Position numbers and translations under genes: made by a program. 64,000 nucleotides of DNA from Megascapheus bottae (lineage: Eukaryota > Chordata > Mammalia > Rodentia > Geomyidae). Positions 670 to 64,000 of this stretch are shown here, in pieces; position 1 is the first letter of the stretch; each line of letters begins with the position of its first letter. The notes below the pieces were generated by a model that saw only the letters and a list, made by a program, of their open reading frames with translations, ran no database searches and was not told the DNA's origin. The stretch spans positions 1,672,498 through 1,736,497 of the forward strand of contig JANJXV010000159.1 in assembly GCA_024803745.1 (NCBI GenBank), in the 5' to 3' direction.

Positions 670-675
670 GGAGGT
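670..675. repeat. Target site duplication GGAGGT, left (LTR 1)
   Basis: GGAGGT sits immediately left of the LTR and is repeated immediately right of it at 995-1000. GGAGGT is the first six bases of the satellite monomer, so the insertion cut between the GGAGGT and GTGTG parts of one monomer. The same pair flanks each of the 13 complete copies. Confidence 0.85.
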
Positions 676-819
676 TGCCGGGGCCAACCGGCGGCAAACC
701 AGGGTTCGCAGATTGGGGTTCCTGAAATCGGGGGCAAGGACTAGCAAGAAATAGAAGAGAGACAGACACAGCGGGTCCGGGATGTCTGCAGTCCAGGTAA
801 AGACTGCTGAGACTGCCGG

Positions 820-825
820 TTTATT
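820..825 (-). promoter_or_regulatory. AATAAA polyadenylation signal in LTR
   Basis: TTTATT on the + strand reads AATAAA on the minus strand, about 170-175 bases from the 5' end of the LTR. This is the usual place for the U3/R boundary region and poly(A) signal. It occurs in every complete copy at LTR start +144 (for example 9809-9814 and 29377-29382). Whether it is used is unknown. Confidence 0.6.
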
Positions 826-900
826 TTCCACTCCCCCTTCTTCCCTCCTCCTGACCCAGGGAACCTCCAGGTGTTACATTCATATGGTAATTCTCAGGTC

Positions 901-908
901 ATTTGCAT
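901..908 (-). promoter_or_regulatory. Octamer (POU) motif ATGCAAAT in LTR U3
   Basis: ATTTGCAT on the + strand is the exact octamer ATGCAAAT on the LTR sense strand, about 87-94 bases from the LTR 5' end. It is intact in all 13 complete copies (LTR start +225, for example 7832-7839). POU-domain factors bind this motif in other promoters. Activity here is inference. Confidence 0.5.
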
Positions 909-1000
909 AGAATAGGGCCTGAAAGCAATAAGACAATAAAGCCATCGTCTGATGCAAGCCAAGGTACAGTTTGATTCCACTCTGGCTCACAACAGGAGGT

Positions 1001-4000
1001 GTGTGAAGTCACAGAATTGAAGTGTGTGAAGTCAAAATGGAGGTGTGTGAAGTCACAGAATGGAGGTCTGTGAAGACACAGAATAGAGGTGTGTGAAGTC
1101 AGAATGGAGGTGTGTGAAGTCAGAATGGAGGTGTGTGAAATCATAGAATGGAGGTGTGTGAAGCTACAACGCAGGTGTGTGAACTCATGGAAAGAAGGTG
1201 TGTGAAGTAAAATTGCAGGTGTGTGAAGTCATAGAATGGAGGTGTGTGAAGTCATAGAATGGAGGTGTGTGAAGTCACAGAATGGAGGTGTGTGAAGTCA
1301 TAGAATGGAGTTGTGTGAAGTCCCAGAATGGAGGTGTGTGAAGTCACAGAATGGAGGTGTGTGAAGTCATAGAATGGAGGTGTGTGAAATCATAGAATGG
1401 AGGTGTGTGAAGTCAGAGTGGAGGTGTGTCAAGTCATAGAATTGAGGTGTGTGAAGTTTTAGAGAATGGAGGTGTGTGAAGTCAGAATGAAGGTGTCTGA
1501 AGTCACAGAAAGGAGGTGTGTGAAGTCACAGAATGGATGTTTGTGAAGTAAGAATGAAGGTGTTTGAAGTCATAGAATGGAGGTGTGAGAAGTAACAGAA
1601 TGGAGGTGTGTGAAGTCATAGAATGGAGGTGTGTGAAGTCATAGAATTGAGGTGTGTGAAGTCATAGAATGGAGGTGTGTGAAGTCACAGAATGGAGGTG
1701 TATGAACTCAGAATGGAGGTGTGTGAAGTCATAGACTGAGGTGGGTGAAGTCATAGAAAGGAGGTGTGGGAAGTCATAGAATGGAGGAGTGTGAAGTCAT
1801 AGAGTGGAGGTGAGTGAAGTCACAGATTCGAGGTCTGTGATGTCATAGAATGGAAGTGTGTGAAGTCAAAATGGAGGTGTGTGAAATCATAGAATGGAGA
1901 TGTGTGAACTCATAGAATGGAGTTGTGTGACCTCACAATGGAAGAGTGTGAAGTCATAGAATGGAGGTGTGAGAAGTCACAGAATGGACGTGTGTGAAGT
2001 CATAAAATGAAGGTGTGTGAACTAAGAATGGAGGTGTGTGAAGTCATAGATGTAGGTGTGTAAAGTCATAGTATGGAGGTTTGTGAAATCACAGAATGGA
2101 GTTTTGTGAAGTCACAGAATGGAGCTGTGTGAAGTCAGAACGGAGGTGTGTGAAGTCATAGAATGGAGGTGTGTGAACTCATAGAATGGAGGTGTGTGAA
2201 GTCACAATGGAGGAGTGTGAAGTCATAGAATTTAGGTGTGTGAAGTCACAAAATGGAGGTGTGTGAAGTCATAGAATGGAGGTGTGTGAAGTCATAGAAT
2301 GGAGGTGTGTGAAGTCAGAATGGAGATGCGTGAAGTCACAGAATTGAGGTGTGTGAAGTCACAGAATGGAGGTGTGTGAAGTCAGAATGAAGGTGTGTGA
2401 AATCACATAATGGAGGTGTGTGAAGTCACAGAATGGATATTTGTGATGTAAGAATGAAGGTGTTTGAAGTCATAGAGTGGAGGTGTGTGAAGTCGCAGAA
2501 TGGAGGTGTGTGAAGTCATAGAATGGAGGTGTGTGAAGTCATAGAATTGAGGTGTGTGAAGTCATAGAATGGAGGTGTGTGAAGTCATAAAATGGAGGTG
2601 TGTGAACTCATAGAATGGAGGTGTGTGAAGTGAAAATGGAGTTGTGTGAAGTCATAGAATGGTGGTTTTTGATGTCAACGAATGGAGGTGTGTGAAGTCA
2701 GAGAATGGAGGTGTGTGAACTCAGAATGGAGGTGTGTGAAGTCACAGAATGTAGGTTTGTGAAGTCATAGAATGGAGGTGTGTGAAGTCAGAGAATGGAT
2801 GTTTCTGAAGTAAGAATGAATGTGTGTGAAGTCATAGAATGGAGGTGTGTGAAGTCAAATTGGAGGTGTGTGAACTCATAGAATGGAGGTGTGTGAACTC
2901 ATAGAATGGAGTGTGTGAAGTCATGGAATGGAGGTGTGTGAAGTCAAAGAATGGAGGTGTGTGAAGTGAAACAATAGAGGTGTGTGAAGTCACAGAATGG
3001 AGGTGTGTGAAGTCACAGAATGGAAGCGTGTGAAGTCAAAACGGAGGTGTGTGAAGTCACAGAATGGAGGTGTGTGAAGTCACAGAATGGAGGTGTGTGA
3101 AGTCATAGAATGGAGGTGTGTGAAATCATAGAATGGAGGTATGTGAAGTCAGAATGGAGGTGTGTGAAGTCACAGAATGGAGGTGTGTGAAGTCACAGAA
3201 TGGAGGTGTGTGAAGTCAGAATGAAGGTGTGTGAAGTCACAGAATGGAGGTGTGTGAAGTCACAGAATGGAGGTGTGTGAAGTAAGAATGAAGGTGTTTG
3301 AAGTCATAGAGTGGAGGTGTGTGAAGTCACAGAATGGAGGTTTGTGAAGTCATAGAATGGAGGTGTGTGAAGTCAGAGAATGGATGTTTCTGAAGTAAGA
3401 ATGAATGTGTGTGAAGTCATAGAATGGAGGTGTGTGAAGTCAAATTGGAGGTGTGTGAACTCATAGAATGGAGGTGTGTGAACTCATAGAATGGAGTGTA
3501 TGAAGTCATGGAATGGAGGTGTGTGAAGTCAAAGAATGGAGGTGTGTGAAGTCAGAATGAAGGTGTGTGAAATCACAGAATGGAGGTGTGTGAAGTCACA
3601 GAATGGATGTTTGTGAAGTAAGAATGAAGGTGTTTGAAGTCATAGAGAGGAGGTGTGTGAAGTCATAGAATTGAAGTGTGTGAAGTCATAGAATGGAGGT
3701 GTGTGAAGTCATAAAATGGAGGTGTGTGAACTCATAGAATGGAGGTGTGTGAAGTTAAAATGGAGTTGTGTGAAGTCATAGAATGGTGGTTTTGATGTCA
3801 ACGAATGGAGGTGTGTGAAGTCACAGAATGGAGGTGTGTGAACTCAGAATAGAGGTGTGTGAAGTCACAGAATGGAGGTTTGTGAAGTCATAGAATGTCG
3901 GTGTGTGAAGTCAGAATGGAGGTGTGTGAAGTCATAAAATGGAGGTGTGTGAACTCATAGAATGGAGGTGTGTGAAGTTAAAATGGAGTTGTGTGAAGTC

Positions 4001-7000
4001 ATAGAATGGTGGTTTTTGATGTCAACGAATGGAGGTGTGTGAAGTCAGAGAATGGAGGTGTGTGAACTCAGAATGGAGGTGTGTGAAGTCACAGAACGGA
4101 GGTTTGTGAAGTCATAGAATGGAGGTGTGTGAAGTCCGAGAATGGATGTTTCTGAAGTAAGAATGAATGTGTGTGAAGTCATAGAATGGAGGTGTGTATA
4201 GTCAAATTGGAGGTGTGTGAACTCATAGAATGGAGGTGTGTGAACTCATAGAATGGAGTGTGTGAAGTCATGGAATGGAGGTGTGTGAAGTCAAAGAATG
4301 GAGGTGTGTGAAGTGAAACAATAGAGGTGTGTGAAGTCACAGAATGGAGGTGTGTGAAGTCACAGAATGGAAGTGTGTGAAGTCAAACCGGAGGTGTGTG
4401 AAGTCACAGAATGGAGGTGTGTGAAGTCACAGAATGGAGGTGTGTGAAGTCATAGAATGGAGGTGTGTGAAATCATAGAATGGAGGTATGTGAAGTCAGA
4501 ATGGAGGTGTGTGAAGTCACAGAATGGAGGTGTGTGAAGTCACAGAATCGAGGTGTGTGAAGTCAGAATGAAGGTGTGTGAAGTCACAGAATGGAGGTGT
4601 GTGAAGTCACAGAATGGAGGTGTGTGAAGTAAGAATGAAGGTGTTTGAAGTCATAGAGTGGAGGTGTGTGAAGTCACAGAATGGAGGTGTGTGAAGTCAG
4701 AATGGAGGTGAGTGAAGTCATAGAATGGAGGTGTTTGAAGTCATAAAATGGAGGTGTGTGAACTCATAGAATGGAGGTGTGTGAAGTCAAAATGGAGTTG
4801 TGTGAAGTCATAGAATGATGTTTTTTGATATCAACGAATGGAAGTGTGTGAAGTCATAGAATGGAGGTGTGTGAAGTCAGATTGGAGGTATGTGAAATCA
4901 CAGAATGGAGGTGTGTGAAGTCACAGAATGGAGGTGTGTAAACTCAGAATGTAGGTGTGTGAAGCCACAGAATGGAGGTGTGTGAAGTCATAGAATGGAA
5001 GTGTGTGAAATCATAGAATGGAGGTGTGTGAAGTCACAGAATTGAGGTGTGTGAAGTCAGAATGGAGGTGTGTGAAGTCAGAATGGAGGTGAGTGAAGTC
5101 ATAGAATGGAGGTTTGTGATGTCATAGAATAGAGGTCTGTGAACTCAGAATGGAGGTTTGTGAAGTCATAGAATGGAGGTGTGTGAACTCAGAATGGAGG
5201 TGTGTGACGTCACAGAATGGAGGTGTGTGAAGTCAGAGAATGGATGATTCTGAAGTAAGAATGAAGGTGTGTGAAGTCATATAATGGAGATGTGTGAAGT
5301 CAAATTGGAGGTGTGTGAACTCATAGAATGGAGGTGTGTGAACTCATAGAATGGAGGTTTGTGACATCATGGAATGGCGGTGTGTGAAGTCAAAGAATGG
5401 AGGTGTGTGAAGTGAAACAATAGAGGTGTGTGAAGTCACAGAATGGAGGTGTGTGAAGTCACAGATTGGAATTGTGTGAAGGCAAAACGGAGGCGTGTGA
5501 AGTCACAGAATGTAGGTGTGTTAAGTCACAGAATGGAGGTGTGTGAAGTCAAAAAGGTGGTGTGTGAAGTCACAGAATGGATGTGTGTGAATTCATAGAA
5601 TGGAGCTGTGTGAAGTCAGAATGGAGGTGTGTGAAGTCAGAATGGAGGGGTGTGAAGTCAGATTGGAGGTGTGTGAAGTCGCAGAATGGAGGTGTGTGAA
5701 GTCATAGAATGGAGGTGTGTGAAATCATAGAATGGAGGTGTGTGAAGTCAGAATGGAGGTGTGTCAAGTCACAGAATTGAGGTGTGTGAAGTCAGAGAAC
5801 GGAGGTGTGTGAAGTCAGAATGAAGGTGTGTGAAGTCACAGAAAGTAGGTGTGTGAAGTCACAGAATGGATGTTTGTGCAGTAAGAATGAAGGTGTTTGA
5901 AGTCATAGAATGGAGGTGTGTGAAGTCACAGAATGGAGGTGTGTGAAGTCATAGAATGGAGGTGTGTGAGGTCATAGAATTGAGGTGTGTGAAGTCATAG
6001 AATGGAGGTGTGTGAAGTCACAGAATGGAGGTGTGTGAAGTCAGAATGGAGGTGTGTGAAGTCATAGACTGAGGTGGGTGAAGTCATAGAAAGGAGTTGT
6101 GGGAAGTCATAGAATGGAGGAGTGTGAAGTCATAGAGTGGAGGTGAGTGAAGTCACAGATTCGAGGTCTGTTATGTCATAGAATGGAGGTGTGTGAAGTA
6201 AGAATGGAGGTGTGTGAAATCATAGAATGGAGATGTGTGAACACATAGAATGGAGTTGTGTGACGTCACAATGGAAGAGTGTGAAGTCATAAAATGAAGG
6301 TGTGTGAAGTCAGAATGGAGGTATGTGAAGTCACAGAATGGAGGTGTGTGAACTCAGAATGGAGGTGTGTGAAGACATAGATGGAGGTGTGTGAAGTCAT
6401 AGTATGGAGGTGTGTGAAATCACAAAATGGAGTTTTGTGAATTCACAGAATGGAGCTGTGTGAAGTCAGAACGGAGGTGTGTGAAGTCATAGAATGGAGG
6501 TGTGTGAAGTCAGAATGGAGGTGGGTGAACTCATAGAATGGAGGTGTGTGAAGTCACAATGGAGGTGTGTGAAGTCATAGAATTTAGGTGTGTGAAGTCA
6601 CAAAATGGAGGTGTGTGAAGTCGTAGAATGGAGGTGTGTGAAGTCATAGAATGGAGGAGTGTGAAGTCAGAATGGAGGTGTGTGAAGTCATAGAATGGAG
6701 GTTTGTGAAGTCACAGAATGGAGGTGTGTGAAGTCAGAATGAAGGTGTGTGAAGTCACAGAATGGAGGTGTGTGAAGTCACAGAATGGATGTTTGTGAAG
6801 TAAGAATGAAGGTGTTTGAAGTCATAGAGTGGAGGTGTGTGAAGTCACAGAATGGAGGTGTGTGAAGTCATAGAATGGACGTCTGTGAAGTCATAGAATT
6901 GAGGTGTGTGAAGTCATAGAATGGAGGTGTGTGAAGTCATAAAATGGAGGTGTGTGAACTCATAGAATGGAGGTGTGTGAAGTCAAAACTTAGTTGTGTA

Positions 7001-7387
7001 AAGTGATAGAATGGTGTTTTTTGATGTCAACGAATGGAGGTGTGTGAAGTCATAGAATGGAGGCGTGTGAAGTCAGATTGGAGGTGTGTGAAATCACAGA
7101 ATGGAGGTGTGTGAAGTCACAGAATGGAGTTGTGTGAACTCAGAATGTAGGTGTGTGAAGCCACAGAATGGAGGTGTGTGAAGTCATAGAATGGAAGTGT
7201 GTGAAATCACAGAATGGAGGTGTGTGAAGTCACAGACTTAAGGTGTGTGAAGTCAGAATGCAGGTGTGTGAAGTCAGAATGGAGGTGAGTGAAGTCATAG
7301 AATGGAGGTGTGTGAAGTCATAGAATGGAGGTCTGTGAACTCAGAATGGAGGTTTGTGAAGTCATAGAATGGAGGTGTGTGGAATCA
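1001..7387 (+). repeat. LTR-free diverged satellite, 6.4 kb
   Basis: Only monomers. Marker GAGTTTTGTGAAG occurs at 2099 and 6430. The divergent TTTTTGATGTCAACG monomer class occurs at about 2661, 3785, 4009, 4817 and 7013. The order of variants in roughly 4.8-6.9 kb matches roughly 44.2-46.3 kb and 56.4-58.5 kb: the TTGATATCAA monomer to the GAGTTTTG marker is about 1.6 kb in all three. Local tandem duplication is likely around 2.5-4.3 kb, where the same landmark string recurs. No gene or RNA gene is seen. Confidence 0.85.
2661..2683 (+). repeat. Divergent 23-bp monomer class (TTTTTGATGTCAACG)
   Basis: This monomer keeps the 23-bp length and the AAT end but replaces GTGTGTGAAGTCATAG with a T-run followed by GATGTCAACG. 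About forty copies occur, for example near 3785, 4009, 4817, 7013, 8510, 8981, 13966, 26937, 30136, 33335, 36534, 41535, 44260, 52487 and 63045, nearly always once per subunit. Subtypes differ in the bases before the T-run. One subtype contains the perfect palindrome TTGATATCAA (for example near 4826 and 41545). It is a good higher-order repeat landmark. A function is not known. Confidence 0.8.
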
Positions 7388-7606
7388 CAGAATGGAGGTG
7401 TGTGAAGTCATAGAATGGAGGTGTGTGAAGTCACAGAATGGAGGTGTGTGAATTCATAGAATGGAGGTGTGTGAAGTCATAGAATGGAGGTGTGTGAAGT
7501 CATAGAATGGAGGTGTGTGAATTCATAGAATGGAGGTGTGTGAAGTCCAAGAATGGAGGTGTGTGAAGTCAAAGAATGGAGGTGTGTGAAGTCACAGAAT
7601 GGAGGT

Positions 7607-7925
7607 TGCCGGGGCCAACCGGCGGCAAACCAAGGTTCGCAGATTGGGGTTCCTGAAATCGGGGGCAAGGACTAGCAAGAAATAGAAGTGAGAGAGACAC
7701 TGCGGGTCCGGGATGTCCGCAGTCCAGGTAAAGATTGCCGAGACTGCCGGTTTATTTTCCACTCCCCCTTCTTCCCTCCTCCTGACCCAGGGAACCTCCA
7801 GGTGTTACATTCATATGGTAATTCTCAGGTCATTTGCATAGAATAGGGCCAGAAAGCAATAAGACAATAAAGCCATCGTCTGATGCAAGCCAAGGTACAG
7901 TTTGATTCCAATCTGGCTCACAACA
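7607..7925 (-). mobile_element. Solo ERV LTR, copy 2
   Basis: Full length, 319 bp, TG...CA ends, GGAGGT at 7601-7606 and 7926-7931. It shares AAACCAAGG and AGTGAGA...CACTGCGGG with copy 3 only, which places these two as sisters made by the 2058-bp duplication. Private changes are GAGAGAGACACTG and a C-to-A change giving TCCAATCTGGC. The octamer and AATAAA are intact. Confidence 0.82.
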
Positions 7926-9664
7926 GGAGGTGTGTGAAGTCACAGAATTGAAGTGTGTAAAGTCAAAATGGAGGTGTGTGAAGTCACAGAATGGAAGTCT
8001 GTGAAGACACAGAATAGAGGTGTGTGAAGTCAGAATGGAGGTGTGTGAAGTCAGAATGGAGGTGTGTGAAATCATAGAATGGAGGTGTGTGAAGACACAA
8101 CGCAGGTGTGTGCACTCATGGAATGAAGGTGTGTGAAGTAAAAGTGAAGGTGTGTGAAGTCATAGAATGGAGGTGTGTGAAGTCATAGAATGGAGGTGTG
8201 TGAAGTCACAGAATGGAGGTGTGTGAAGTCATAGAATGGAGGTGTGTGAAGTCACAGAATGGAGGTGTGTGAAGTCATAGAATGGAGGTGTGTGAAGTCA
8301 TAGAATGGAGGCGTGTGAAGTAATAGAATGGAGGACTGTGAACTCAGAATTGAGGTTTGTGAAGTCATAGAATGGAGGTGTGTGAAGTCACAGAATGGAG
8401 GTGTGTGAAGTCATAGAATGGAGGTGTGTGAAGTCATAAAATGGAGGTGTGTGAATTCATAGAATGGAGGTGTGTGAAGTCACAATGGAGTTGTGCGAAG
8501 TCATAGAATGGTTGTTTTTGATGTCAACGAATGGAGGTGTGTGAAGTCATAGAATGGAGGTGTGTGAAGTCATAGAATGGAGGTGTGTGAAATCATAAAA
8601 CGGAAGTGTGTGAAGTCAAAGAATTGAGGTGTGTGAAGTCAGAATGGAGGTTTGTGAAGTCAAAATGGAGGTGTGTGAAGTCATAGAATGGAAGTGTGTG
8701 AAGTCATAGAATGGAGGTCTGTGAACTCAGAATGGAGGTGTGTGAAGTCACAGAATGGAGGTGTGTGAACTCAGAATGGAGGTGTGTGAAGTCACAGAAT
8801 GGAGGTTTGTGAAGTCATAGAATGGAGGTGTGTGAAGTCAGAGAATGGATGTTTCTGAAGTAAGAATGGAGGTGTGTGAACTCATAGAATGGAGGTGTGT
8901 GAAGTCATAAAATGGAGGTGTGTGAACTCATAGAATGGAGGTGTGTGAAGTCAAAATGGAGTTGTGTGAAGTCATAGAATAATGTTTTTTGATATCAACG
9001 AATGGAAGTGTGTGAAGTCATAGAATGGAGGTGTGTGAAGTCAGATTGGAGGTATGTGAAATCACAGAATGGAGGTGTGTGAAGTCACAGAATGGAGGTG
9101 TGTAAACTCAGAATGTAGGTGTGTGAAGCCACAGAATGGAGGTGTGTGAAGTCATAGAATGGAAGTGTGTGAAATCATAGAATGGAGGTGTGTGAAGTCA
9201 CAGAATTGAGGTGTGTGAAGTCAGAATGGAGGTGTGTGAAGTCAGAATGGAGGTGACTGAAGTCATAGAATGGAGGTGTGTGATGTCATAGAATAGAGGT
9301 CTGTGAACTCAGAATGGAGGTTTGTGAAGTCATAGAATGGAGGTGTGTGAACTCAGAATGGAGGTGTGTGAAGTCACAGAATGGAGGTGTGTGAAGTCAC
9401 AGAATGGAGGTGTGTGAATTCATAGAATGGAGGTGTGTGAAGTCATAGAATGGAGGTGTGTGAAGTCATAGAATGGAGGTGTGTGAAGTCACAGAATGGA
9501 GGTGTGTGAATTCATAGAATGGAGGTGTGTGAAGTCATAGAATGGAGGTGTGTGAAGTCATAGAATGGAGGTGTGTGAATTCATAGAATGGAGGTGTGTG
9601 AAGTCCAAGAATGGAGGTGTGTGAAGTCAAAGAATGGAGGTGTGTGAAGTCACAGAATGGAGGT

Positions 9665-9983
9665 TGCCGGGGCCAACCGGCGGCAAACCAAGGTTCGCAG
9701 ATTGGGGTTCCTGAAATCGGGGGCAAGGACTAGCAAGAAATAGAAGTGAGACAGACACTGCGGGTCCGGGATGTCCGCAGTCCAGGTAAAGATTGCCGAG
9801 ACTGCCGGTTTATTTTCCACTCCCCCTTCTTCCCTCCTCCTGACCCAGGGAACCTCCAGGTGTTACATTCATATGGTAATTCTCAGGTCATTTGCATAGA
9901 ATAGGGCCAGAAAGCAATAAGACAATAAAGCCATCGTCTGATGCAAGCCAAGGTACAGTTTGATTCCACTCTGGCTCACAACA
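9665..9983 (-). mobile_element. Solo ERV LTR, copy 3
   Basis: Full length, 319 bp, flanked by GGAGGT (9659-9664 and 9984-9989). It is the sister of copy 2 (AAACCAAGG, AGTGAGACAGACACTGC). It keeps the C-rich CTTCTTCCC and AACCTCC forms seen in copies 1, 11, 12 and 13, so it lies outside the homogenised group of copies 4-10. Confidence 0.82.
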
Positions 9984-49714: not shown

Positions 49715-49720
49715 GGAGGT

Positions 49721-50039: not shown

Positions 50040-50045
50040 GGAGGT

Positions 50046-51567: not shown

Positions 51568-51573
51568 GGAGGT

Positions 51574-51892
51574 TGCCGGGGCCAACCGGCGGCAAACCAG
51601 GGTTCGCAGATTGGGGTTCCTGAAATCGGGGGCAAGGACTAGCAAGAAATAGAAGAGAGACAGACACAGCGGGTCCGGGATGTCCGCAGTCCAGGTAAAG
51701 ATTGCCGAGACTGCCGGTTTATTTTCCACTCCCCCTTCTTCCCTCCTCCTGACCCAGGGAACCTCCAGGTGTTACATTCATATGGTAATTCTCAGGTCAT
51801 TTGCATAGAATAGGGCCAGAAAGCAATAAGACAATAAAGCCATCGTCTGATGCAAGCCAAGGTAGAGTTTGATTCCACTCTGGCTCACAACA
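51574..51892 (-). mobile_element. Solo ERV LTR, copy 12
   Basis: Full length, 319 bp, GGAGGT on both sides (51568-51573 and 51893-51898). TGCCGGGG, CCAGGTAAAG, CTTCTTCCC, AACCTCC. Shares GGTAGAG with copy 11, so the two are sisters apart from the conversion-like patch in copy 11. Confidence 0.82.
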
Positions 51893-51898
51893 GGAGGT

Positions 51899-54800
51899 GT
51901 GTGAAGTCACAGAATTGAAGTGTGTGAAGTCAAAATGGAGGTGTGTGAAGTCACAGAATGGAAGTCTGTGAAGACACAGAATAGAGGTGTGTGAAGTCAG
52001 AATGGAGGTGTGTGAAGTCAGAATGGAGGTGTGTGAAATCATAGAATGGAGGTGTGTGAAGCCACAACGCAGGTGTGTGAACTCATGGAATGAATGTGTG
52101 TGAAGTAAAATTGCAGGTGTGTGAAGTCATAGAATGGAGGTGTGTGAAGTCATAGAATGGAGGTGTGTGAAGTCACAGAATGGAGGTGTGTGAAGTCATA
52201 GAATGGAGGTGTATGAAGTCACAGAATGGAGGTGTGTGAATTCATAGAATGGAGGTGTGTGAAGTCATAGAATGGAGGTGTGTGAAGTAATAGAATGGAG
52301 GACTGTGAACTCAGAATTGAGGTTTGTGAAGTCATAGAATGGAGGTGTGTGAAGTCACAGAATGGAGGTGTGTGAAGTCATAGAATGGAGGTGTGTAAAG
52401 TCATAAAATGGAGGTGTGTGAATTCATAGAATGGAGGTGTGTGAAGTCACACTGGAGTTGTGTGAAGTCATAGAATGGTTGTTTTTGATGTCAACGAATG
52501 GAGGTGTGTGAAGTCATAGAATGGAGGTGTGTGAAGTCAGATTGGAGGTGTGTGAAATCACAGAATGGAGGTGTGTCAACTCAGAAATGAGGTGTGTGAA
52601 GTCATAGAATGGAGGTGTGTGAAGTCATAGAATGGAGGTGTGTGAAATCATAAAATGAAAGTGTGTGAAGTCAAAGAATTGAGGTGTGTGAAGTCAGAAT
52701 GGAGGTGTGTGAAGTCAAAATGGAGGTGTGTGAAGTCATAGAATGGAAGTGTGTGAAGTCATAGAATGGAGGTCTGTGAACTCAGAATGGAGGTGTGTCA
52801 AGTCACAGAATCGAGGTGTGTGAACTCAGAATGGAGGTGTGTGAAGTCACAGAATGGAGGTTTGTGAAGTCATAGAATGGAGGTGTGTGAAGTCAGAGAA
52901 TGGATGTTTCTAAAGTAAGAATGGAGGTGTGTGAACTCATAGAATGGAGGTGTGTGAAGTCAAATTGGAGGTGTGTGAAGTCAAAGAATGGAGGTGTGTG
53001 AAGTGAAACAATAGAGGTGTGTGAAGTCACAGAATGGAGGTGTGTGAAGTCACAGAATGGAAGTGTGTGAAGTCAAAACGGAGGTGTGTAAAGTCACAGA
53101 ATGGAGGTGTGTGAAGTCATAATGGAGGTGTGTGAAATCACAGAATGGAGGTGTGTGAATTCATAGAACGGAGGTGTGTGAAGTCATAGGATCGAGGTGT
53201 GTGAAGTCACAGAGTGGAGGTGTGTGAAGTCACAGAATGGAGGTGTGTGAAGTCACAGAATGGAGGTGTGTGAACTCAGAATGGAGGTGTGTGAAGACAC
53301 AGAATGGAGGTGTGTGAAGTCATAGAATGGAAGTGTGTGAAGTCATAGAATGGAGGTGTGTAAAATCATAAAATGGAGGTGTGTGAACTCATAGAATGGA
53401 GGTGTGTGAAGTCAAAATGGAGTTGTGTGAAGTCATAGAATGGTGTTTTTTGATGTCAACGAATGGAGGTGTGTGAAGTCATAGAATGGAGGCGTGTGAA
53501 GTCAGATTGGAGGTGTGTGAAATCACAGAATGGAGGTGTGTGAAGTCACAGAATGGAGTTGTGTGAACTCAGAATGTAGGTGTGTGAAGCCACAGAATGT
53601 AGGTGTGTGAAGTCATAGAATGGAAGTGTGTGAAATCATAGAATGGAGGTGTGTGAAGTCACAGATTACGGTGTGTGAAGTCAGAATGGAGGTGTGTGAA
53701 GTCAGAATGGAGGTGTGTGAAGTCATAGAATGGAGGTGTGTGAAGTCATAGAATGAAGGTCTGTGAACTCAGAATGGAGGTTTGTGAAGTCATAGAATTG
53801 AGGTGTGTGAACTCAGAATGGAGGTGTGTGAAGTCACAGAATGGAGGTGTGTGAAGTCATAGAATGGAGGTTTGTAAAATCACAGAATGGAGGTGTGTTA
53901 ATTCATTGAATGGAGGTGTGTGAAGTCATAGGATCGAGGTGTGTGAAGTCACAGAATGGAGGTGTGTGAAGTCACAGAATGGAGGTGTGTGAAGTCATAG
54001 AATGGAGGTGTGTGAATTCAGAATGGAGGTGTGTGAAGCCACAGAATGGAGGTGTGTGAAGTCACAGAATGGAGGTGTGTGAAGTCAGAATGAAGGTGTG
54101 TGAAATCACAGAATGGAGGTAAGTGAAGTCAGAGAATGGATGTTTGTGAAGTAAGAATGAAGGTGTTTGAAGTCATAGAGTGGAGGTGTGTGAAGTCACA
54201 GAATGCAGGTGTGTGAAGTCATAAAATGGAGGTGTGTGAACTCATAGAACGGAGGTGTGTGAAGTTAAAATGGAGTTGTGTGAAGTCATAGAATGGTGGT
54301 TTTTGATGTCAACGAATGGAGGTGTGTGAAGTCACAGAATGGAGGTGTGTGAACTCAGAATGGAGGTGTGTGAAGTCACAGAATGGAGGTTTGTGAAGTC
54401 ATAGAATGGAAGTGTGTGAAGTCACAGAATGGAGGTGTGTGAACTCAGAATGGAGGTGTGTGAAGTCACAGAATGGAGGTTTGTGAAGTCATAGAATGGA
54501 GGTGTGCGAAGTCAGACAATGGAGGTGTGTGAAGTCAGAATGAAGGTGTGTGAAGTCACAGAAAGGAGGTGTGTGAAGTCACAGAATGGATGTTTGTGAA
54601 GTAAGAATGAAGGTGTTTGAAGTCATAGAATTGAGGTGTGTGAAGTCACAGAATGGAGGTGTGTGAAGTCAGAATGGAGGAGTGTGAAGTCATAGACTGA
54701 GGTGGGAGAAGTCATAGAAAGGAGGTGTGGGAAGTCATAGAATAGAGGAGTGTGAAGTCATAGAGTGGAGGTGAATGAAGTCACAGATTCGAGGTCTGTG

Positions 54801-57800
54801 ATGTCATAGAATGGAGGTGTGTGAAGTTAGAATGGAGGTGTGTGAAATCATAGAGTGAAGATGTGTGAACTCAGAGAATGGAGTTGTGTGACGTCACAAT
54901 GGAAGAGTGTGAAGTCATAGAATGGAGGTGTGAGAAGTCACAGAATGGAGGTGTGTGAAGTCATAAAATGAAGGTGTGTAAAGTCAGAATGGAGGTGTGT
55001 GAAGTCACAGAATGGAGGTGTGTGAACTCAGAATGGAGGTGTGTGAAGTCCTAGATGGAGGTGTGTGAAGTCATAGTATGGAGGTGTGTGAAATCACAGA
55101 ATGGAGTTTTGTGAAGTCACAGAATGGAGCTCTGTGAATTCAGAACGGAGGTGTGTGAAGTCATAGAATGGAGGTGTGTGAAGTCAGAATGGAGGTGTGT
55201 GAAGTCAGAATGGAGGTGTGTGAAGTCACAGAATTGAGGTGTGTGAAGTCACAGAATGGAGGTGTGTGAAGTCAGAAAGAAGGTGTGTGAAATCACAGAT
55301 TGGAGGTGTGTGAAGTCACAGAATGGATGTTTGTGAAGTAAGAATGAAGGTGTTTGAAGTCATAGAGTGGAGGTGTGTGAAGTCACAGAATGGAGGTGTG
55401 TGAAGTCATAGAATGGAGGTGTGTGAAGTCATAGAATGGAGGTGTGTGAAGTCATAGAATGGAGGTGTGTGAAGTCATAAAATGGAGGTGTGTGAACTCA
55501 TAGAATGGAGGTGTGTGAAGTTAAAATGGAGTTGTGTGAAGTCATAGAATGGTGGTTTTTGATGTCAACGAATGGAGGTGTGTGAAGTCAGAGAATGGAG
55601 GTGTGTGAACTCAGAATGGAGGTGTGTGAAGTCACAGAATGGAGGTTTGTGAAGTCATAGAATGGAGGTGTGTGAAGTCAGAGAATGGATGTTTCTGAAG
55701 TAAGAATGAATGTGTGTGAAGTCACAGAATAGAGGTGTGTGAAGTCAAATTGGAGGTGTGTGAACTCATAGAATGGAGGTGTGTGAACTCATAGAATGGA
55801 GTGTGTGAAGTCATGGAATGGAGGTGTGTGAAGTAAGAATGAAGGTGTTTGAAGTCATAGAGTGGAGGTGTGTGAAGTCACAGAATGGAGGTGTGTGAAG
55901 TGAAACAATAGAGGTGTGTGAAGTCACAGAATGGAGGTGTGTGAAGTCACAGAATGGAAGTGTGTGAAGTCAAAACGGAGGTGTGTGAAGTCACAGAATG
56001 GAGGTGTGTGAAGTCACAGAATGGAGGTGTGTGAAGTCATAGAATGGAGGTGTGTGAAATCATAGAATGGAGGTATGTGAAGTCAGAATGGAGGTGTGTG
56101 AAGTCACAGAATGGAGGTGTGTGAAGTCACAGAATGGAGGTGTGTGAAGTCAGAATGAAGGTGTGTGAAGTCACAGAATGGACGTGTGTGAAGTCACAGA
56201 ATGGAGGTGTGTGAAGTAAGAATGAAGGTGTTTGAAGTCATAGAGTGGAGGTGTGTGAAGTCACAGAATGGAGGTGTGTGAAGTCAGATTGGAGGTGTGT
56301 GAAATCACAGAATGGAGGTGTGTGAAGTCATAGAATGGAGGTGTGTGAAGTCATAAAATGGAGGTGTGTGAACTCATAGAATGGAGGTGTGTGAAGTCAA
56401 AATGGAGTTGTGTGAAGTCATAGAATGATGTTTTTTGATATCAACGAATGGAAGTGTGTGAAGTCATAGAATGGAGGTGTGTGAAGTCAGATTGGAGGTA
56501 TGTGAAATCACAGAATGGAGGTGTGTGAAGTCACAGAATGGAGGTGTGTAAACTCAGAATGTAGGTGTGTGAAGCCACAGAATGGAGGTTTGTGAAGTCA
56601 TAGAATGGAAGTGTGTGAAATCATAGAATGGAGGTGTGTGAAGTCACAGAATTGAGGTGTGTGAAGTCAGAATGGAGGTGTGTGAAGTCAGAATGGAGGT
56701 GAGTGAAGTCATAGAATGGAGGTGTGTGATGTCATAGAATAGAGGTCTGTGAACTCAGAATGGAGGTTTGTGAAGTCATAGAATGGAGGTGTGTGAACTC
56801 AGAATGGAGGTGTGTGAAGTCACAGAATGGAGGTGTGTGAAGTCAGAGAATGGATGATTCTGAAGTAAGAATGAAGGTGTGTGAAGTCATATAATGGAGA
56901 TGTGTGAAGTCAAATTGGAGGTGTGTGAACTCATAGAATGGAGGTGTGTGAACTCATAGAATGGAGGTTTGTGACATCATGGAATGGCGGTGTGTGAAGT
57001 CAAAGAATGGAGGTGTGTGAAGTGAAACAATAGAGGTGTGTGAAGTCACAGAATGGAGGTGTGTGAAGTCACAGATTGGAATTGTGTGAAGGCAAAACGG
57101 AGGCGTGTGAAGTCACAGAATGGAGGTGTGTTAAGTCACAGAATGGAGGTGTGTGAAGTCAAAAAGGTGGTGTGTGAAGTCACAGAATGGATGTGTGTGA
57201 ATTCATAGAATGGAGCTGTGTGAAGTCAGAATGGAGGTGTGTAAAGTCAGAATGGAGGGGTGTGAAGTCAGATTGGAGGTGTGTGAAGTCACAGAATGGA
57301 GGTGTGTGAAGTCATAGAATGGAGGTGTGTGAAATCATAGAATGGAGGTGTGTGAAGTCAGAATGGATGTGTGTCAAGTCACAGAATTGAGGTGTGTGAA
57401 GTCAGAGAATGGAGGTGTGTGAAGTCAGAATGAAGGTGTGTGAAGTCACAGAAAGGAGGTGTGTGAAGTCACAGAATGGATGTTTGTGAAGTAAGAATGA
57501 AGTCATAGAATGGAGGTGTGTGAAGTCACAGAATGGAGGTGTGTGAAGTCATAGAATGGAGGTGTGTGAGGTCATAGAATTGAGGTGTGTGAAGTCATAG
57601 AATGGAGGTGTGTGAAGTCACAGAATGGAGGTGTGTGAAGTCAGAATGGAGGAGTGTGAAGTCATAGACTGAGGTGGGTGAAGTCATAGAAAGGAGTTGT
57701 AGGAAGTCATAGAATGGAGGAGTGTGAAGTCATAGAGTGGAGGTGAGTGAAGTCACAGATTCTAGGTCTGTTATGTCATAGAATGGAGTTGTGTGAAGTA

Positions 57801-60681
57801 AGAATGGAGGTGTGTGAAATCATAGAATGGAGATGTGTGAACACATAGAATGGAGTTGTGTGACGTCACAATGGAAGAGTGTGAAGTCATAAAATGAAGG
57901 TGTGTGAAGTCAGAATGGAGGTATGTGAAGTCACAGAATGGAGGTGTGTGAACTCAGAATGGAGGTGTGTGAAGTCATAGATGGAGGTGTGTGAAGTCAT
58001 AGTATGGAGGTGTGTGAAATCACAGAATGGAGTTTTGTGAAGTCACAGAATGGAGCTGTGTGAAGTCAGAACGGAGGTGTGTGAAGTCATAGAATGGAGG
58101 TGTGTGAAGTCAGAATGGAGGTGGGTGAACTCATAGAATGGAGGTGTGTGAAGTCACAATGGAGGTGTGTGAAGTCATAGAATTTAGGTGTGTGAAGTCA
58201 CAAAATGGAGGTGTGTGAAGTCATAGAATGGAGGTGTGTGAAGTCATAGAATGGAGGTGTGTGAAGTCAGAATGGAGGTGTGTGAAGTCACAGAATTGAG
58301 GTGTGTGAAGTCACAGAATGGAGGTGTGTGAAGTCAGAATGAAGGTGTGTGAAATCACAGAATGGAGGTGTGTGAAGTCACAGAATGGATGTTTGTGAAG
58401 TAAGAATGAAGGTGTTTGAAGTCATAGAGTGGAGGTGTGTGAAGTCACAGAATGGAGGTGTGTGAAGTCATAGAATGGAGGTGTATGAAATCATAGAATT
58501 GAAGTGTGTGAAGTCATAGAATGGAGGTGTGTGAAGTCATAAAATGGAGGTGTGTGAACTCATAGAATGGAGGTGTGTGAAGTTAAAATGGAGTTGTGTG
58601 AAGTCATAGAATGGTGGTTTTGATGTCAACGAATGGAGGTGTGTGAAGTCACAGAATGGAGGTTTGTGAAGTCAAAGAATGGAGGTGTGTGAAGTGAAAC
58701 AATAGAGGTGTGTGAAGTCACAGAATGGAGGTGTGTGAAGTCACAGAATGGAAGTGTGTGAAGTCAAAACGGAGGTGTGTGAAGTCACAGAATGGAGGTG
58801 TGTGAAGTCACAGAATGGAGGTGTGTGAAGTCAAAAAGTTGGTTTGTGAAGTCACAGAATGGAGGTGTGTGAAGTCATAGAATGGAGGTGTGTGAAGTCA
58901 AAGAATGGAGGTTTGTGAAGTCAGAATGAAGGTGTGTGAAGTCACAGAATGGAGGTGTGTGAAGTCACAGAATGGATGTTTGTGAAGTAAGAATGAAGGT
59001 GTTTGAAGTCATAGAGTGGAGGTGTGTGAAGTCACAGAATGGAGGTGTGTGAAGTCATAGAATGGAGGTCTGTGAAGTCATAGAATTGAGGTGTGTGACG
59101 TCATAGAATGGAGGTGTGTGAAGTCATAAAATGGAGGTGTGTGAACTCATAGAATGGAGGTGTGTGAAGTCAAAACTGAGTTGTGTAAAGTCATAGAATG
59201 GTGTTTTTTGATGTCAACGAATGGAGGTGTGTGAAGTCATAGAATGGAGGCGTGTGAAGTCAGATTGGAGGTGTGTGAAATCACAGAATGGAGGTGTGTG
59301 AAGTCACAGAATGGAGTTGTGTGAACTCAGAATGTAGGTGTGTGAAGCCAAAGAATGGAGGTGTGTGAAGTCATAGAATGGAAGTGTGTGAAATCACAGA
59401 ATGGAGGTGTGTGAAGTCACTGACTTAAGGTGTGTTAAGTCAGAATGTAGGTGTGTGAAGTCAGAATGGAGGTGAGTGAAGTCATAGAATGGAGGTGTGT
59501 GAAGTCATAGAATGGAGGTCTGTGAACTCAGAATGGAGGTTTGTGAAGTCATAGAATGGAGGTGTGTGAAATCACAGAATGGAGGTGTGTGAAGTCATAG
59601 AATGGAGGTGTGTGAAGTCATAAAATGGAGGTGTGTGAATTCATAGAATTGAGGTGTGTGAGGTCACACTGGAGTTGTGTGAAGTCATAGAATGGTTGTT
59701 TTTGATGTCAACGAATGGAGGTGTGTGAAGTCATAGAATGGAGGTGTGTGAAGTCAGATTGGAGGTGTGTGAAATCACAGAATGGAGGTGTGTCAACTCA
59801 GAAATGAGGTGTGTGAAGTCATAGAATGGAGGTGTGTGAAGTCATAGAATGGAAGTGTGTGAAATCATAGAATGGAGGTGTGTGAAGTCAAAGAACTGAG
59901 GTGTGTGAAATCAGAATGGAGGTGTGTGAAGTCAGAATGGAGGTGTGTGAAGTCACAGAAAGGAGGTGTGTGAAGTCACAGTATGGATGTTTGTGAAGTA
60001 AGAATGAAGGTGTTTGAAGTCATAGAATGGAGGTGTGTGAAGTCAAAGAATGGAGGTGTGTGAAGTCATAGAATGGAGGTGTGTGAAGTCATAGAATTGA
60101 GGTGTGTGAAGTCATAGAATAGAGGTGTGTGAAGTCACAGAATGGAGGTGTGTGAAGTCAGAATGGAGGTGTGTGAAGTCATAGACTGAGGTGGGTGAAG
60201 TCATAGAAAGGAGGTGTGGGAAGTCATAGAATGGAGATATGTGAACACATAGAATGGAGTTGTGTGACGTCACAATGGAAGTGTGTGAAGTCATAGAATG
60301 GAGGTGTGAGAAGTCACAGAATGGAGGTGTGTGAAGTCATAAAATGAAGTTGTGTGAAGTCAGAATGGAGGTGTGTGAAGTCACAAAATGGAGGTGTGTG
60401 AACTCAGAATGGAGGTGTGTGAAGTCATAGATGGAGGTGTGTGAAGTCATAGTATGGAGGTGTGTGAAGTCATAGAATGGAGGTGTGTGAAGTCCAAGAA
60501 TGGAGGTGTGTGAAGTCAAAGAATGGAGGTGTGTGAAGTCAGAATGGAGGTGTGTGAACTCATAGAATGGAGGTGTGTGAAGTCACAATGGAGGTGTGTG
60601 AGGTCATAGAATGGAGGTGTGTGAAGTCCAAGAATGGAGGTGTGTGAAGTCAAAGAATGGAGGTGTGTGAAGTCACAGAAT
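51899..60681 (+). repeat. Mostly LTR-free satellite, 8.8 kb
   Basis: Only monomers. Up to about 54.0 kb the order follows the right flank of LTR-bearing units (52.0-53.9 kb resembles 13.4-15.5 kb). It then switches to the LTR-free type, including the 54.08-58.66 kb copy of 39.2-43.5 kb, with GAGTTTTG markers at 55104 and 58030. Near 60490-60540 there is a string matching the left flank of the LTR (GTCCAAGAATGG then GTCAAAGAATGG) with no LTR after it. No gene is seen. Confidence 0.85.
54080..58660 (+). repeat. LTR-free block duplicated from 39.2-43.5 kb, second copy
   Basis: Partner of 39190-43560, about 14.9 kb away, with the LTR 11 and LTR 12 region between them. It keeps about 226 bp absent from the first copy. 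Point differences are scattered (for example GAGCTCTGTG at about 55128), so it is older than the 3199-bp array. Confidence 0.75.
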
Positions 60682-60687
60682 GGAGGT

Positions 60688-61006
60688 TGCCGGGGCCAAC
60701 CGGAGGCAAACCAGGGTTCGCAGATTGGGGTTCCTGAAATCGGGGGCAAGGACTAGCAAGAAATAGAAGAGAGACAGACACAGCGGGTCCAGGATGTCTG
60801 CAGTCCAGGTAAAGATTGCCGAGACTGCCGGTTTATTTTCCACTCCCCCTTCTTCCCTCCTCCTGACCCAGGGAACCTCCAGGTGTTACATTCATATGGT
60901 AATTCTCAGGTCATTTGCATAGAATAGGGCCAGAAAGCAATAAGACAATAAAGCCATCGTCTGATGCAAGCCAAGGTACAGTTTGATTCCACTCTGGCTC
61001 ACAACA
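60688..61006 (-). mobile_element. Solo ERV LTR, copy 13
   Basis: Full length, 319 bp, GGAGGT on both sides (60682-60687 and 61007-61012). CCGGAGGCAAAC (instead of CCGGCGGCAAAC) is shared only with copy 14. It also has GTCCAGGATGTCTGC, and GATGTCTGCAG is shared with copy 1. Confidence 0.82.
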
Positions 61007-61012
61007 GGAGGT

Positions 61013-63950
61013 GTGTGAAGTCACAGAATTGAAGCGTGTGAAGTCAAAATGGAGGTGTGTGAAGTCACAGAATGGAAGTCTGTGAAGACACAGAATAGAG
61101 GTGTGTGAAGTCAGAATGGAGGTGTGTGAAGTCAGAATGGAGGTGTGTAAAGTCATAGAATGGAGGTGTGTGAAGCCACAACGCAGGTGTGTGAACTCAT
61201 GGAATGAAGGTGTGTGAAGTAAAATTGCAGGTGTGTGAAGTCATAGAATGGAGGTGTGTGAAGTCATAGAATGGAAGTGTGTGAAGTCAAAACGGAGGTG
61301 TGTGAAGTCACAGAATGGAGGTGTGTGAAGTCACAGAATGGAGGTGTGTGAAGTCAAAAAGTTGGTTTGTGAAGTCACAGAATGGAGGTGTGTGAAGTCA
61401 CAGAATGGAGGTGTGTGAAGTCATAGAATGGAGGTGTGTGAAGTCATAAAATGGAGGTGTGTGAATTCATAGAATGGAGATGTGTGAAGTCACAATGGAT
61501 TTGTGTGAAGTCATAGAATGTTTGTTTTTGATGTCAACGAATGGAGGTGTGTGAAGTCATAGAATGGGGGTGTGTGAAGTCACAGAATGGAGGTGTGTGA
61601 AGTCATAATGGAGGTGTGTGAAATCACAGAATGGAGGTGTGTGAATTCATAGAACGGAGGTGTGTGAAGTCATAGGATCGAGGTGTGTGAAATCACAGAA
61701 TGGAGGTGTGTCAACTCAGAAATGAGGTGTGTGAAGTCACAGAATGGAGGTGTGTGAAGTCATAGAATGGAGGTGTGTGAAATCATAAAATGGAGGTGTG
61801 TGAAGTCAAAAAATTGAGGTGTGTGAAGTCAGATTGGAGGTGTGTGAAGTCAAAATGGAGGTGTGTGAAGTCATAGAATGGAAGTGTGTGAAGTCATAGA
61901 ATGGAGGTCTGTGAACTCTGAATGCGGGTTTGTGAAGTCATAGAATGGAGGTGTGTGAACTCAGAATGGCGGTGTGTGAAGTCACAGAATGGAGGTGTGT
62001 GAAGTCATAATGGAGGTGTGTGAAATCACAGAATGGAGGTGTGTGAATTCATAGAACGGAGGTGTGTGAAGTCATAGGATCGAGGTGTGTGAAGTCACAG
62101 AGTGGAGGTGTGTGAAGTCACAGAATGGAGGTGTGTGAAGTCACAGAATGGAGGTGTGTGAACTCAGAATGGAGGTGTGTGAAGCCACAGAATGGAGGTG
62201 TGTGAAGTCATAGAATGGAAGTGTGTGAAGTCATAGAGTGGAGGTGTGTGAAGGAAGAATGGAGGTGTGTGAAGTCACAGAATGGAGGTGTGTGAACTCA
62301 GAATGGAGGTGTGTGAAGTCACAGAATGGAGGTTTGTGAAGTCATAGAATGGAGGTGTGTGAAGTCAGAGAATGGATGTTTCTGAAGTAAGAATGAAGGT
62401 GTGTGTAGTCATAGAATGGAGGTGTGTTAAGTCAAATTGGAGGTGTGTGAACTCATAGAATGGAGGTGTGTGAACTCATAGAATGGAGGTGTGTGAAGTC
62501 ATGGAATGGAGGTGTGTGAAGTCAAAGAATGGAGGTGTGTGAAGTGAAACAATAGAGGTGTGTGAAGTCACAGAATGGAGTTGTGTGAAGTCACAGAATA
62601 GAAGCGTGTGAAGTCAAAACGGAGGTGTGTGAAGTCACAGAATGGAGGTGTGTGAAGTCACAGAATGGAGGTGTGTGAAGTCCAAAAGGTGGTGTGTGTA
62701 GTCACAGAATGGAGGTGTGTGAAGTCATAGAATGGAGGTGTGTGCAGTCACAGAATGGAGGTATGTGAAGTCACAGAATGGAGGTGTGTGAAGTCCAAAA
62801 GGTGGTGTGTGTAGTCACAGAATGGAGGTGTGTGAAGTCATAGAATGGAGGTGTATGAAGTCACAGAATGGAGGTGTGTGAAGTCACAGACTTAAGGTGT
62901 GTGAAGTCAGAATGTAGGTGTGTGAAGTCAGAATGGAGGTGAGTGAAGTCATAGAATGGAGGTGTGTGAAGTCACAGAATGGAGGTGTGTGAAGTCATAG
63001 AATGGAGGTGTGTGAAGTCACACTGGAGTTGTGTGAAGTCATAGAATGGTTGTTTTTGATGTCAACTCAGAAATGAGGTGTGTGAAGTCACAGAAAGGAG
63101 GTGTGTGAAGTCACAGTATGGATGTTTGTGAAGTAAGAATGAAGGTGTTTGAAGTTATAGAATGGAGGTGTGTGAAGTCAAAGAATGGAGGTGTGTGAAG
63201 TCATAGAATGGATTGGTGTGAAGTCATAGAATTGAGGTGAGTGAAGTCATAGAATAGAGGTGTGTGAAGTCACAGAATGGAGGTGTGTGAAGTCAGAATG
63301 GAGGTGTGTGAAGTCATAGACTGAGGTGGGTGAAGTCATAGAAAGGAGGTGTGGGAAGTCATAGAATGGAGATATGTGAACATAGAATGGAGTTGTGTGA
63401 CGTCACAATGGAAGTGTGTGAAGTCATAGAATGGAGGTGTGAGAAGTCACAGAATGGGGGTGTGTGAAATCATAAAATGAAGTTGTGTGAAGTCAGAATG
63501 GAGGTGTGTGAAGTCACAGAATGGAGGTGTGTGAACTCAGAATGGAGGTGTGTGAAGTCATAGATGGAGGTGTGTGAAGTCATAGTATGGAGGTGTGTGA
63601 AATCACAGAATGGAGTTTTGTGAAGTCACAGAATGGAGCTGTGTGAAGGCAGAAGGGAGGTGTGTGAAGTCATAGAATGGAGGTGTGTGAAGTCAGAATG
63701 GAGGTGTGTGAACTCATAGAATGGAGGTGTGTGAAGTCACAATGGAGGTGTGTGAAGTCATAGAATGGAGGTGTGTGAAGTCACAGAATGGAGGTGTGTG
63801 AATTCATTGAATGGAGGTGTGTGAAGTCATAGAATGGAGGTGTGTGAAGTCATAGAATGGAGGTGTGTGAATTCATAGAATGGAGGTGTGTGAAGCCCAA
63901 GAATTGAGGTGTGTGATGTCAAAGAATGGAGGTGTGTGAAGTCACAGAAT
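61013..63950 (+). repeat. Satellite between LTR 13 and LTR 14
   Basis: Only monomers. The LTR spacing of 3269 bp is close to the 3199-bp unit but the variant order differs: GTCATAATGGAGG plus GAACGGAGG recurs at about 61.6 and 62.0 kb, and a CCAAAAGGTGGTGTG string recurs at about 62.68 and 62.79 kb. These are small internal duplications. The GAGTTTTG marker is at 63613. No gene is seen. Confidence 0.8.
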
Positions 63951-63956
63951 GGAGGT

Positions 63957-64000
63957 TGCCGGGGCCAACCGGAGGCAAACCAGGGTTCGCAGATTGGGGT
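63957..64000 (-). mobile_element. Solo ERV LTR, copy 14, cut by window end
   Basis: The first 44 bases on the + strand (the 3' end of the LTR) are present, preceded by GGAGGT at 63951-63956. CCGGAGGCAAAC links it to copy 13. The rest lies beyond the window. Confidence 0.78.

What the first reader, a model, noticed from the sequence alone, without database searches (positions are those of the whole stretch)
670..64000. One LTR insertion with a satellite-derived target duplication, amplified to 14 copies
All 14 copies share orientation and junction, and the 13 complete ones share the same 319-bp length and the same 6-bp duplication GGAGGT, which is the start of the monomer. Independent insertions would differ in phase and orientation. 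So a provirus inserted once, became a solo LTR, and was then carried by satellite amplification. Seen: junctions and lengths. Known: 6-bp duplications are typical of class II ERVs, and cattle 1.711b satellite is a precedent for an LTR-like insert in a satellite. Inferred: order of events.
Basis: partly seen in the sequence, partly recalled or inferred. Interest (0 to 1): 0.8.

Follow-up and report, generated by a model that had tools for sequence, protein, structure and literature searches.

The report
Solo viral LTR amplified inside satellite
A single leftover end-piece of an ancient virus landed once in a 23-letter tandem repeat of an animal (probably a rodent) and was then copied more than a thousand times together with that repeat, much like a known case in human centromeres.

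Summary
Confirmed: 14 copies, 13 complete at 319 bp, one orientation, bounded by GGAGGT. In 264 kb, 47 of 47 copies share orientation and junction, with shared monomers for about 200 bp left and 350-400 bp right before array background. Fifty-seven copies from six contigs form one clade against 20 dispersed copies (100/96). The piece is an LTR: of 20 dispersed loci, 14 have exact, all different 6-bp duplications and 4 abut a polypurine tract with shared internal sequence. The junction has 1,712 matches in the genome at up to 2 mismatches. New: other insertions of the same or related LTRs lie in this satellite elsewhere, 56 exact hits in 16 other gap/orientation classes; 16 of 56 were read and none joins the window clade. 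So one founder of at least 17 was hugely amplified; the next largest junction has 10 exact copies. Counts differ in sensitivity (2 mismatches against exact). Closest precedent: human HERV-K111. Not settled: primer binding site, pol, host species, chromosome position, empty site genome-wide.

The parts
1..64000 (+). 23-bp / 21-bp tandem satellite (unit TGTGAAGTCATAGAATGGAGGTG), interrupted by 14 LTR copies; continues past both window ends
670..675 (+). left copy of the 6-bp target duplication GGAGGT (first LTR)
676..994 (-). LTR copy 1, 319 bp; TG...CA ends; viral sense is the minus strand (the polypurine tract of dispersed copies lies beside the CAACA end)
995..1000 (+). right copy of GGAGGT
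7607..7925 (-). LTR copy 2
9665..9983 (-). LTR copy 3
13062..13380 (-). LTR copy 4 (identical to the copies at 24384, 26034, 29233, 32432, 35631)
17743..18061 (-). LTR copy 5
24384..24702 (-). LTR copy 6
26034..26352 (-). LTR copy 7
29233..29551 (-). LTR copy 8
32432..32750 (-). LTR copy 9
35631..35949 (-). LTR copy 10
49721..50039 (-). LTR copy 11
51574..51892 (-). LTR copy 12
60688..61006 (-). LTR copy 13
63957..64000 (-). LTR copy 14, cut by the window end; complete (319 bp) in the neighbouring sequence
25267..34903 (+). stretch that matches itself at a lag of 3,199 bp (99.9%): about four tandem copies of a 3.2-kb block with one LTR each
47618..64000 (+). window part of a 29.6-kb stretch (47618-77232 in window numbering) repeated about 41.7 kb downstream at 99.5-99.8%, with its LTR copies

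Best explanation
One provirus of an LTR family that is dispersed through this genome integrated into one monomer of a 23-bp satellite and duplicated GGAGGT (shown: junction, target duplication, dispersed family). Its two LTRs recombined to leave a solo LTR (inferred: no internal sequence in 57 checked copies). The satellite's ordinary turnover, unequal exchange and block duplication with some gene conversion, then copied the LTR with its neighbouring monomers along the array and onto arrays on other contigs, to about 1,700 places (copying shown; the exact recombination process inferred). Similarity around the LTR ends at different distances in different copies, so only a core of about 200 bp left and 350-400 bp right is shared by nearly all. 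The LTR was most likely a passenger: 16 other gap/orientation classes of insertion of the same or related LTRs sit in the same satellite, the largest with 12 exact hits.
For: 47 of 47 copies in 264 kb have one orientation and 319 bp; the left duplication is GGAGGT in 45 and GGAGGC in 2, the right GGAGGT in 47. Ten further copies on C243, C1616, C52, C65 and C144 have the same junction and neighbouring monomers. Right flank 95-98% identical over the first 350 bp and left 89-95% over the first 200 bp, against a background near 87%, ending at copy-specific distances. Tree: 57 window-type copies one clade against 20 dispersed (100/96, bootstrap not settled; 54 copies 100/96) and against 20 dispersed plus 16 other satellite insertions (99/96). 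At positions 18, 96, 230, 284 and 314 none of 20 dispersed copies has a satellite state; a 1-bp deletion near 143 is in 54 of 54 satellite copies against 1 of 20. The satellite-type LTR end with the flanks that the pattern admits (about 42% of possible ones): 0 exact matches in the genome, against 593 at one mismatch. Copies with more similar LTRs have more similar 1-kb flanks (Spearman -0.24, 0 of 1,000 permutations as low). Blocks copied at 99.5-99.9%.
Against: No uninterrupted target with both diagnostic flanks in 264 kb: the best joined-flank match has 10 mismatches in 149; the genome-wide search for it did not complete. A Mantel test of LTR distance against right-400 distance gave r = 0.008 (866 of 2,000 permutations as high; left-200 gave 0.30, 0 of 2,000); a few copies (153236, 155229) lose flank similarity close to the LTR, so exchange near the LTR has partly unlinked it. 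The 20 dispersed copies are the first listed and only flanks admitted by the pattern, so a closer dispersed relative may have been missed. Position 230 G also occurs in 6 of the 12 related-subfamily LTRs, so that one state is not unique. Of the 1,712 junction matches only 57 copies were read on both sides, so proviruses among the rest are not excluded.
Confidence: 0.92

Rival explanations
1. Many independent insertions aimed at the same base of the monomer by a sequence-preferring integrase.
For: The satellite is hit repeatedly: 56 exact hits of the same or related LTR ends in 16 other gap/orientation classes.
Against: Those insertions are spread over phases and both orientations, and the 16 read are outside the window clade. 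The window copies share unusual neighbouring monomers and private bases. The 14 exact target duplications at dispersed loci are all different.
Confidence: 0.02
2. The LTR cassette of roughly 0.9 kb (LTR plus about 200 and 400 bp) spread mainly by gene conversion or by reinsertion of extrachromosomal circles into pre-existing array, rather than by unequal exchange and block duplication.
For: Nearly all copies share only a short core, and flank identity falls to background beyond it. LTR and right-400 distances are unlinked.
Against: Large blocks with several LTRs are copied intact (3.2 kb in four copies; 29.6 kb). Closely related LTRs share more similar 1-kb flanks and longer extensions. Similarity does not end at one fixed distance.
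Confidence: 0.2
3. The LTR itself drives the amplification, for example as a recombination or transcription start site.
For: This junction reaches 1,712 matches and a second solo LTR of the same subfamily in opposite orientation (TTTGAC duplication) has 10 exact junction copies, about 2.5 kb apart where clustered.
Against: LTR-free array is block-duplicated too: -57105 to -52967 at lag 2,940 and 81075 to 86173 at lag 5,045 in window numbering hold no LTR, and the 60 kb left of the window has only 3 copies. The other insertion classes have 1 to 12 exact hits.
Confidence: 0.08
4. An assembly artefact: one locus repeated by misassembly.
For: Some blocks are 99.8-99.9% alike; the assembly has 2,786 contigs.
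Against: Copies carry distinct substitutions (20 variable columns in 13 copies) and different flank end points; the junction lies on many contigs.
Confidence: 0.03

Closest known systems
HERV-K111 (and K222) in human pericentromeric repeats CER:D22Z3 / pCER:D22Z8 (PMC4425911, passages read)
   Same: An ERV insertion in a tandem repeat with a fixed 6-bp target duplication (GAATTC for K111), spread within and between chromosomes by recombination; the paper estimates about 207 to 968 K111 copies per diploid genome. K111 and K222 are described as two independent insertions in similar repeats, as there are several insertions here.
   Different: Here only a solo LTR is seen in 57 checked copies, the satellite unit is 23 bp (CER: eight 48-bp segments), the host is another animal, and there are 16 other insertion classes.
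Cattle 1.711b satellite with an LTR-like insert
   Same: As recalled, a satellite unit that contains an inserted LTR-like element, amplified together with it.
   Different: PMC7644632 (passage) gives only a size of about 2.6 kb for the 1.711b monomer; here spacing of LTRs is irregular, 1.65 to 14.1 kb. The LTR-like nature was not found in any passage seen here.
LTR11B_BT in the cattle X centromere (PMC12663436, passage)
   Same: An LTR annotated over a large part (477 kb) of a centromere.
   Different: The passage gives no junction, target duplication or single-origin test; other parts of the paper were not read.
Solo LTRs and tandem repeats in rye subtelomeric heterochromatin (PMC4857426, abstract and outline)
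   Same: Solo LTRs strongly enriched beside tandem arrays; recombination proposed as the engine of expansion.
   Different: Plant repeats; elements in the regions flanking the arrays rather than one junction inside them.

Membership tests
LTR of an endogenous retrovirus | TG...CA ends conserved between copies | tested here: met
   13 of 13 complete window copies and 19 of 20 dispersed loci; in L043 the alignment stops one base short, at position 318 of 319
LTR of an endogenous retrovirus | Short target duplication of constant length, different at each locus | tested here: met
   14 of 20 dispersed loci exact 6 bp, 1 with one mismatch, 1 (L046) with 5 bp; the other 4 are one end of a provirus
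LTR of an endogenous retrovirus | Polypurine tract directly before the 3' LTR, with shared internal sequence | tested here: met
   4 of 20 dispersed loci (L035, L041, L042, L043): tract beside the LTR and 1.14-1.2 kb of 94.9-99.2% identical internal sequence
LTR of an endogenous retrovirus | tRNA primer binding site after the 5' LTR | not tested
   genome search asked four times, never answered
Class II (ERVK-like) ERV | pol / gag of betaretrovirus-like type | not tested
   only about 1.2 kb next to the 3' LTR was seen; longest stop-free stretch in the three sense frames 125 codons; the 6-bp duplication is suggestive only
Solo LTR | One LTR between the two target duplications, no internal sequence | tested here: met
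   57 of 57 copies read on both sides; not read for the other junction matches
K111-type satellite-amplified ERV | One integration: same junction and duplication in all descendants, one clade | tested here: met
   57 copies:
K111-type satellite-amplified ERV | Pericentromeric position on several chromosomes | not testable with these tools
   contigs carry numbers only; the junction is on many contigs

The most novel reading that the evidence does not exclude
This satellite is a natural competition between founder insertions: the same and related LTRs sit in it in 17 gap/orientation classes, yet one solo LTR reached about 1,700 copies, a second about 10, and the rest stayed rare. If the winner's rise is not drift, the solo LTR or its monomer context gives the array an advantage, for example antisense transcription from the LTR that aids heterochromatin, or a recombination hotspot.
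Probability: 0.08. Interest if true: 0.75.

Novelty: new member of a known kind. Interest (0 to 1): 0.45.

Why it matters
It is a clean marker inside a satellite: one insertion, one junction, many descendants. The LTR and its private bases let one trace block duplication, exchange and spread between contigs in an array that otherwise looks uniform. The rarer independent insertions in the same satellite give an internal control for how often amplification happens. It repeats, in another animal and with a solo LTR, what K111 did in human centromeres.

Tried and rejected
Considered and rejected: independent targeted insertions (single clade, shared flanks, other phases exist); chance (control 0); a phase-specific or orientation-specific integrase.

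Led nowhere: an LTR 35-mer in viral contigs, 0 matches; tRNA and Rfam scans of the window, 0; an Rfam scan of 16 of the 20 dispersed loci gave two tRNA-family matches just above the gathering score. In that scan the left 60-mer alone also occurs, within 3 mismatches, at many LTR-free places, and so do random phase-matched 60-mers, so a single short flank word is not diagnostic by itself; random 149-mers mostly have a near-identical copy elsewhere (36 of 39 with at most 1 mismatch), whereas the joined flanks do not (10). Literature: one search found no paper for its four terms; K111 came up and again; some searches gave side material (listings only, apart from the papers named). A Mantel test of LTR against right-400 distance showed no link; with 1-kb flanks on both sides and ranks a link appears. 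Host identity: ID-like matches in 6 loci (76-87%), B1-reference matches in 2 loci (80-87%) and Alu-reference matches in 2 loci (83-88%, 33-47 bp; Alu and B1 are related, recalled), none to the B2 reference. This suggests a rodent outside the mouse-like group, nothing firmer. The cytochrome-oxidase search for the host did not complete.
Full report
Observation. The window is one satellite array from end to end, unit TGTGAAGTCATAGAATGGAGGTG, with 23-bp and 21-bp variants. It holds 14 LTR copies; 13 are complete at 319 bp and the 14th is cut by the window end but is complete in the next piece. All lie on the same strand and all have GGAGGT at each side that lies in the window. The 13 copies differ at 20 of 319 columns, at most 10 between two copies, and six are identical.

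Surroundings. The window is part of a 2.84-Gb, 2,786-contig genome. In 264 kb around it (200 kb fetched plus the window) the array has no edge and holds 47 copies: 47 of 47 in one orientation and 319 bp long, right GGAGGT in 47, left GGAGGT in 45 and GGAGGC in 2. Ten more copies read on five other contigs (C243 six, C1616 one, C52, C65 and C144 one each) have the same junction and neighbouring monomers, two of them (C65, C144) with a different second monomer on the left. Genome-wide the left junction has 1,712 matches at up to two mismatches and its reversed control none; the places that the answer listed (about 100) were all exact. Apart from the copies read above, these matches were not read individually.

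One origin. The monomers beside the LTR are shared: right flank 95-98% identical in the first 350 bp and left flank 89-95% in the first 200 bp, then array background of about 87%. The distance at which similarity stops differs from copy to copy, as expected if exchanges eroded one founder's surroundings. In a tree with 20 dispersed copies the satellite copies are one clade (54 copies, 100/96; 57 copies, 100/96 with the bootstrap not settled). At positions 18, 96, 230, 284 and 314 none of the 20 dispersed copies has a satellite state, and a 1-bp deletion near 143 is in 54 of 54 satellite copies and 1 of 20 dispersed; the state at 230 also occurs in 6 of 12 related-subfamily LTRs read later. A pattern for the satellite-type LTR end with a flank whose last three bases are not G, not G and not T (about 42% of possible flanks) gave 593 matches at one mismatch and none without mismatch. 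Mean distance is 1.9% among satellite copies, 4.4% among dispersed, 5.7% between. With neutral rates of a few per billion years per site (recalled), 1.9% would put the common ancestor of the copies in the low millions of years; gene conversion makes this a lower limit.

It is an LTR. The 20 dispersed loci (first 20 of 593, so not a random sample) begin and end at the same bases as the satellite copies, with one base short in L043. Fourteen have exact 6-bp duplications, all different; one has one mismatch and one has 5 bp. In the other four the LTR abuts a polypurine tract and shares 94.9-99.2% identical internal sequence of 1.14-1.2 kb. That fixes the viral sense as the minus strand of the window. 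In three sense frames the internal pieces have no stop-free stretch over 125 codons; gag, pol and the primer binding site were not seen, so class II rests on the duplication length.

How it was copied. Recent steps are visible: a 3,199-bp unit in about four tandem copies at 99.9%, and a 29.6-kb stretch (47,618 to 77,232 in window numbering) repeated about 41.7 kb further on at 99.5-99.8%, each carrying its LTRs. LTR-free stretches are duplicated as well. Pairs with identical LTRs have 1-kb flanks 94-95% alike, pairs with ten or more differences 87.5-90% (Spearman -0.24, 0 of 1,000 permutations as low). A Mantel test of LTR against the first 400 bp on the right gave no link (r 0.008, 866 of 2,000 as high), against the left 200 bp a link (r 0.30, 0 of 2,000). 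This points to exchange or conversion close to the LTR on the right in some copies, as one search shows for 153236 and 155229. No uninterrupted target with both flanks was found in 264 kb (best 10 mismatches of 149); the genome-wide version was asked 16 times and never answered.

Other insertions in the same satellite. Two patterns looked for LTR ends in the satellite at other phases: 37 exact matches in the opposite orientation (control 0) and 19 in the same orientation (control 1). They fall in 9 and 7 gap classes, 28 junction strings. Being exact matches with a fixed satellite word, these counts are lower bounds and not on the same footing as the 1,712. Sixteen of the 56 were fetched, covering 15 of the 16 classes, and read. 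Four belong to the same LTR subfamily (92-94% identity): two solo LTRs with exact duplications ACACAA (C230) and TTTGAC (C784), and two beside a polypurine tract (C388, C98). Twelve are related LTRs with 69-88% identity over part or most of the length, several beside a polypurine tract; no target duplication was confirmed for these. None of the 16 joins the window clade, which stays whole (99/96). The TTTGAC junction occurs 10 times, about 2.5 kb apart where clustered: a second, small amplification of an independent solo LTR in the opposite orientation. A related-subfamily junction (GTGAGTTCA) occurs 6 times; whether by amplification or by overlapping contigs was not tested.

Comparison. The closest match is HERV-K111: one insertion in a centromeric repeat, one 6-bp duplication, spread by recombination within and between chromosomes, about 207-968 copies per diploid genome (PMC4425911, passages). 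In rye, solo LTRs are enriched beside subtelomeric tandem arrays (PMC4857426, abstract), and the cattle X centromere holds 477 kb annotated as one LTR (PMC12663436, passage). A search for 'solo LTR', 'satellite DNA', '23 bp' and 'amplified' together found no paper; that library lacks most subscription journals, so this does not show absence from print.

Verdict. A real and well-supported case of a solo LTR carried by satellite amplification; a new member of a known kind, notable for its scale and for the independent insertions that act as controls.

Noticed in passing
G000 C784:159523, 263392, 265870, 268391, 270914; C1730:65755, 68278, 70756; C809:245161; C1615:27026: A second solo LTR of the same subfamily (one copy, L058, read), opposite orientation, duplication TTTGAC, 10 exact junction copies, about 2.5 kb apart where clustered: a parallel, smaller amplification.
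   Followed up: partly
L054, L056, L060, L064, L065, L067: Related LTRs (about 69-71% identity to the window LTR, with the same TGCCGGGGCC end) inserted in the same satellite; in four the LTR end directly abuts a polypurine tract, in two a tract lies a few bases on, so proviruses as well as solo LTRs seem to lie in it.
   Followed up: partly
G000 C2:77137309, 77477750, 77770010, 78290396, 78586932: Five dispersed-type LTR ends with the same ATA flank, same strand, within 1.45 Mb: looks like a segmentally duplicated LTR locus.
   Followed up: no
G000 C1616:13595, 19407, 22587, 28397: Four of the five C1616 copies listed span 318 bp, a 1-bp shorter sublineage of the satellite LTR.
   Followed up: no
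L050 (C65) and L051 (C144): A 320-bp sublineage with one extra G after position 54 and a different left neighbouring monomer but the same right flank.
   Followed up: partly
window numbering -60000 to 204000: LTR density is uneven: 3 copies in the 60 kb left of the window, 14 starting in the window, 30 in the 140 kb to the right.
   Followed up: no
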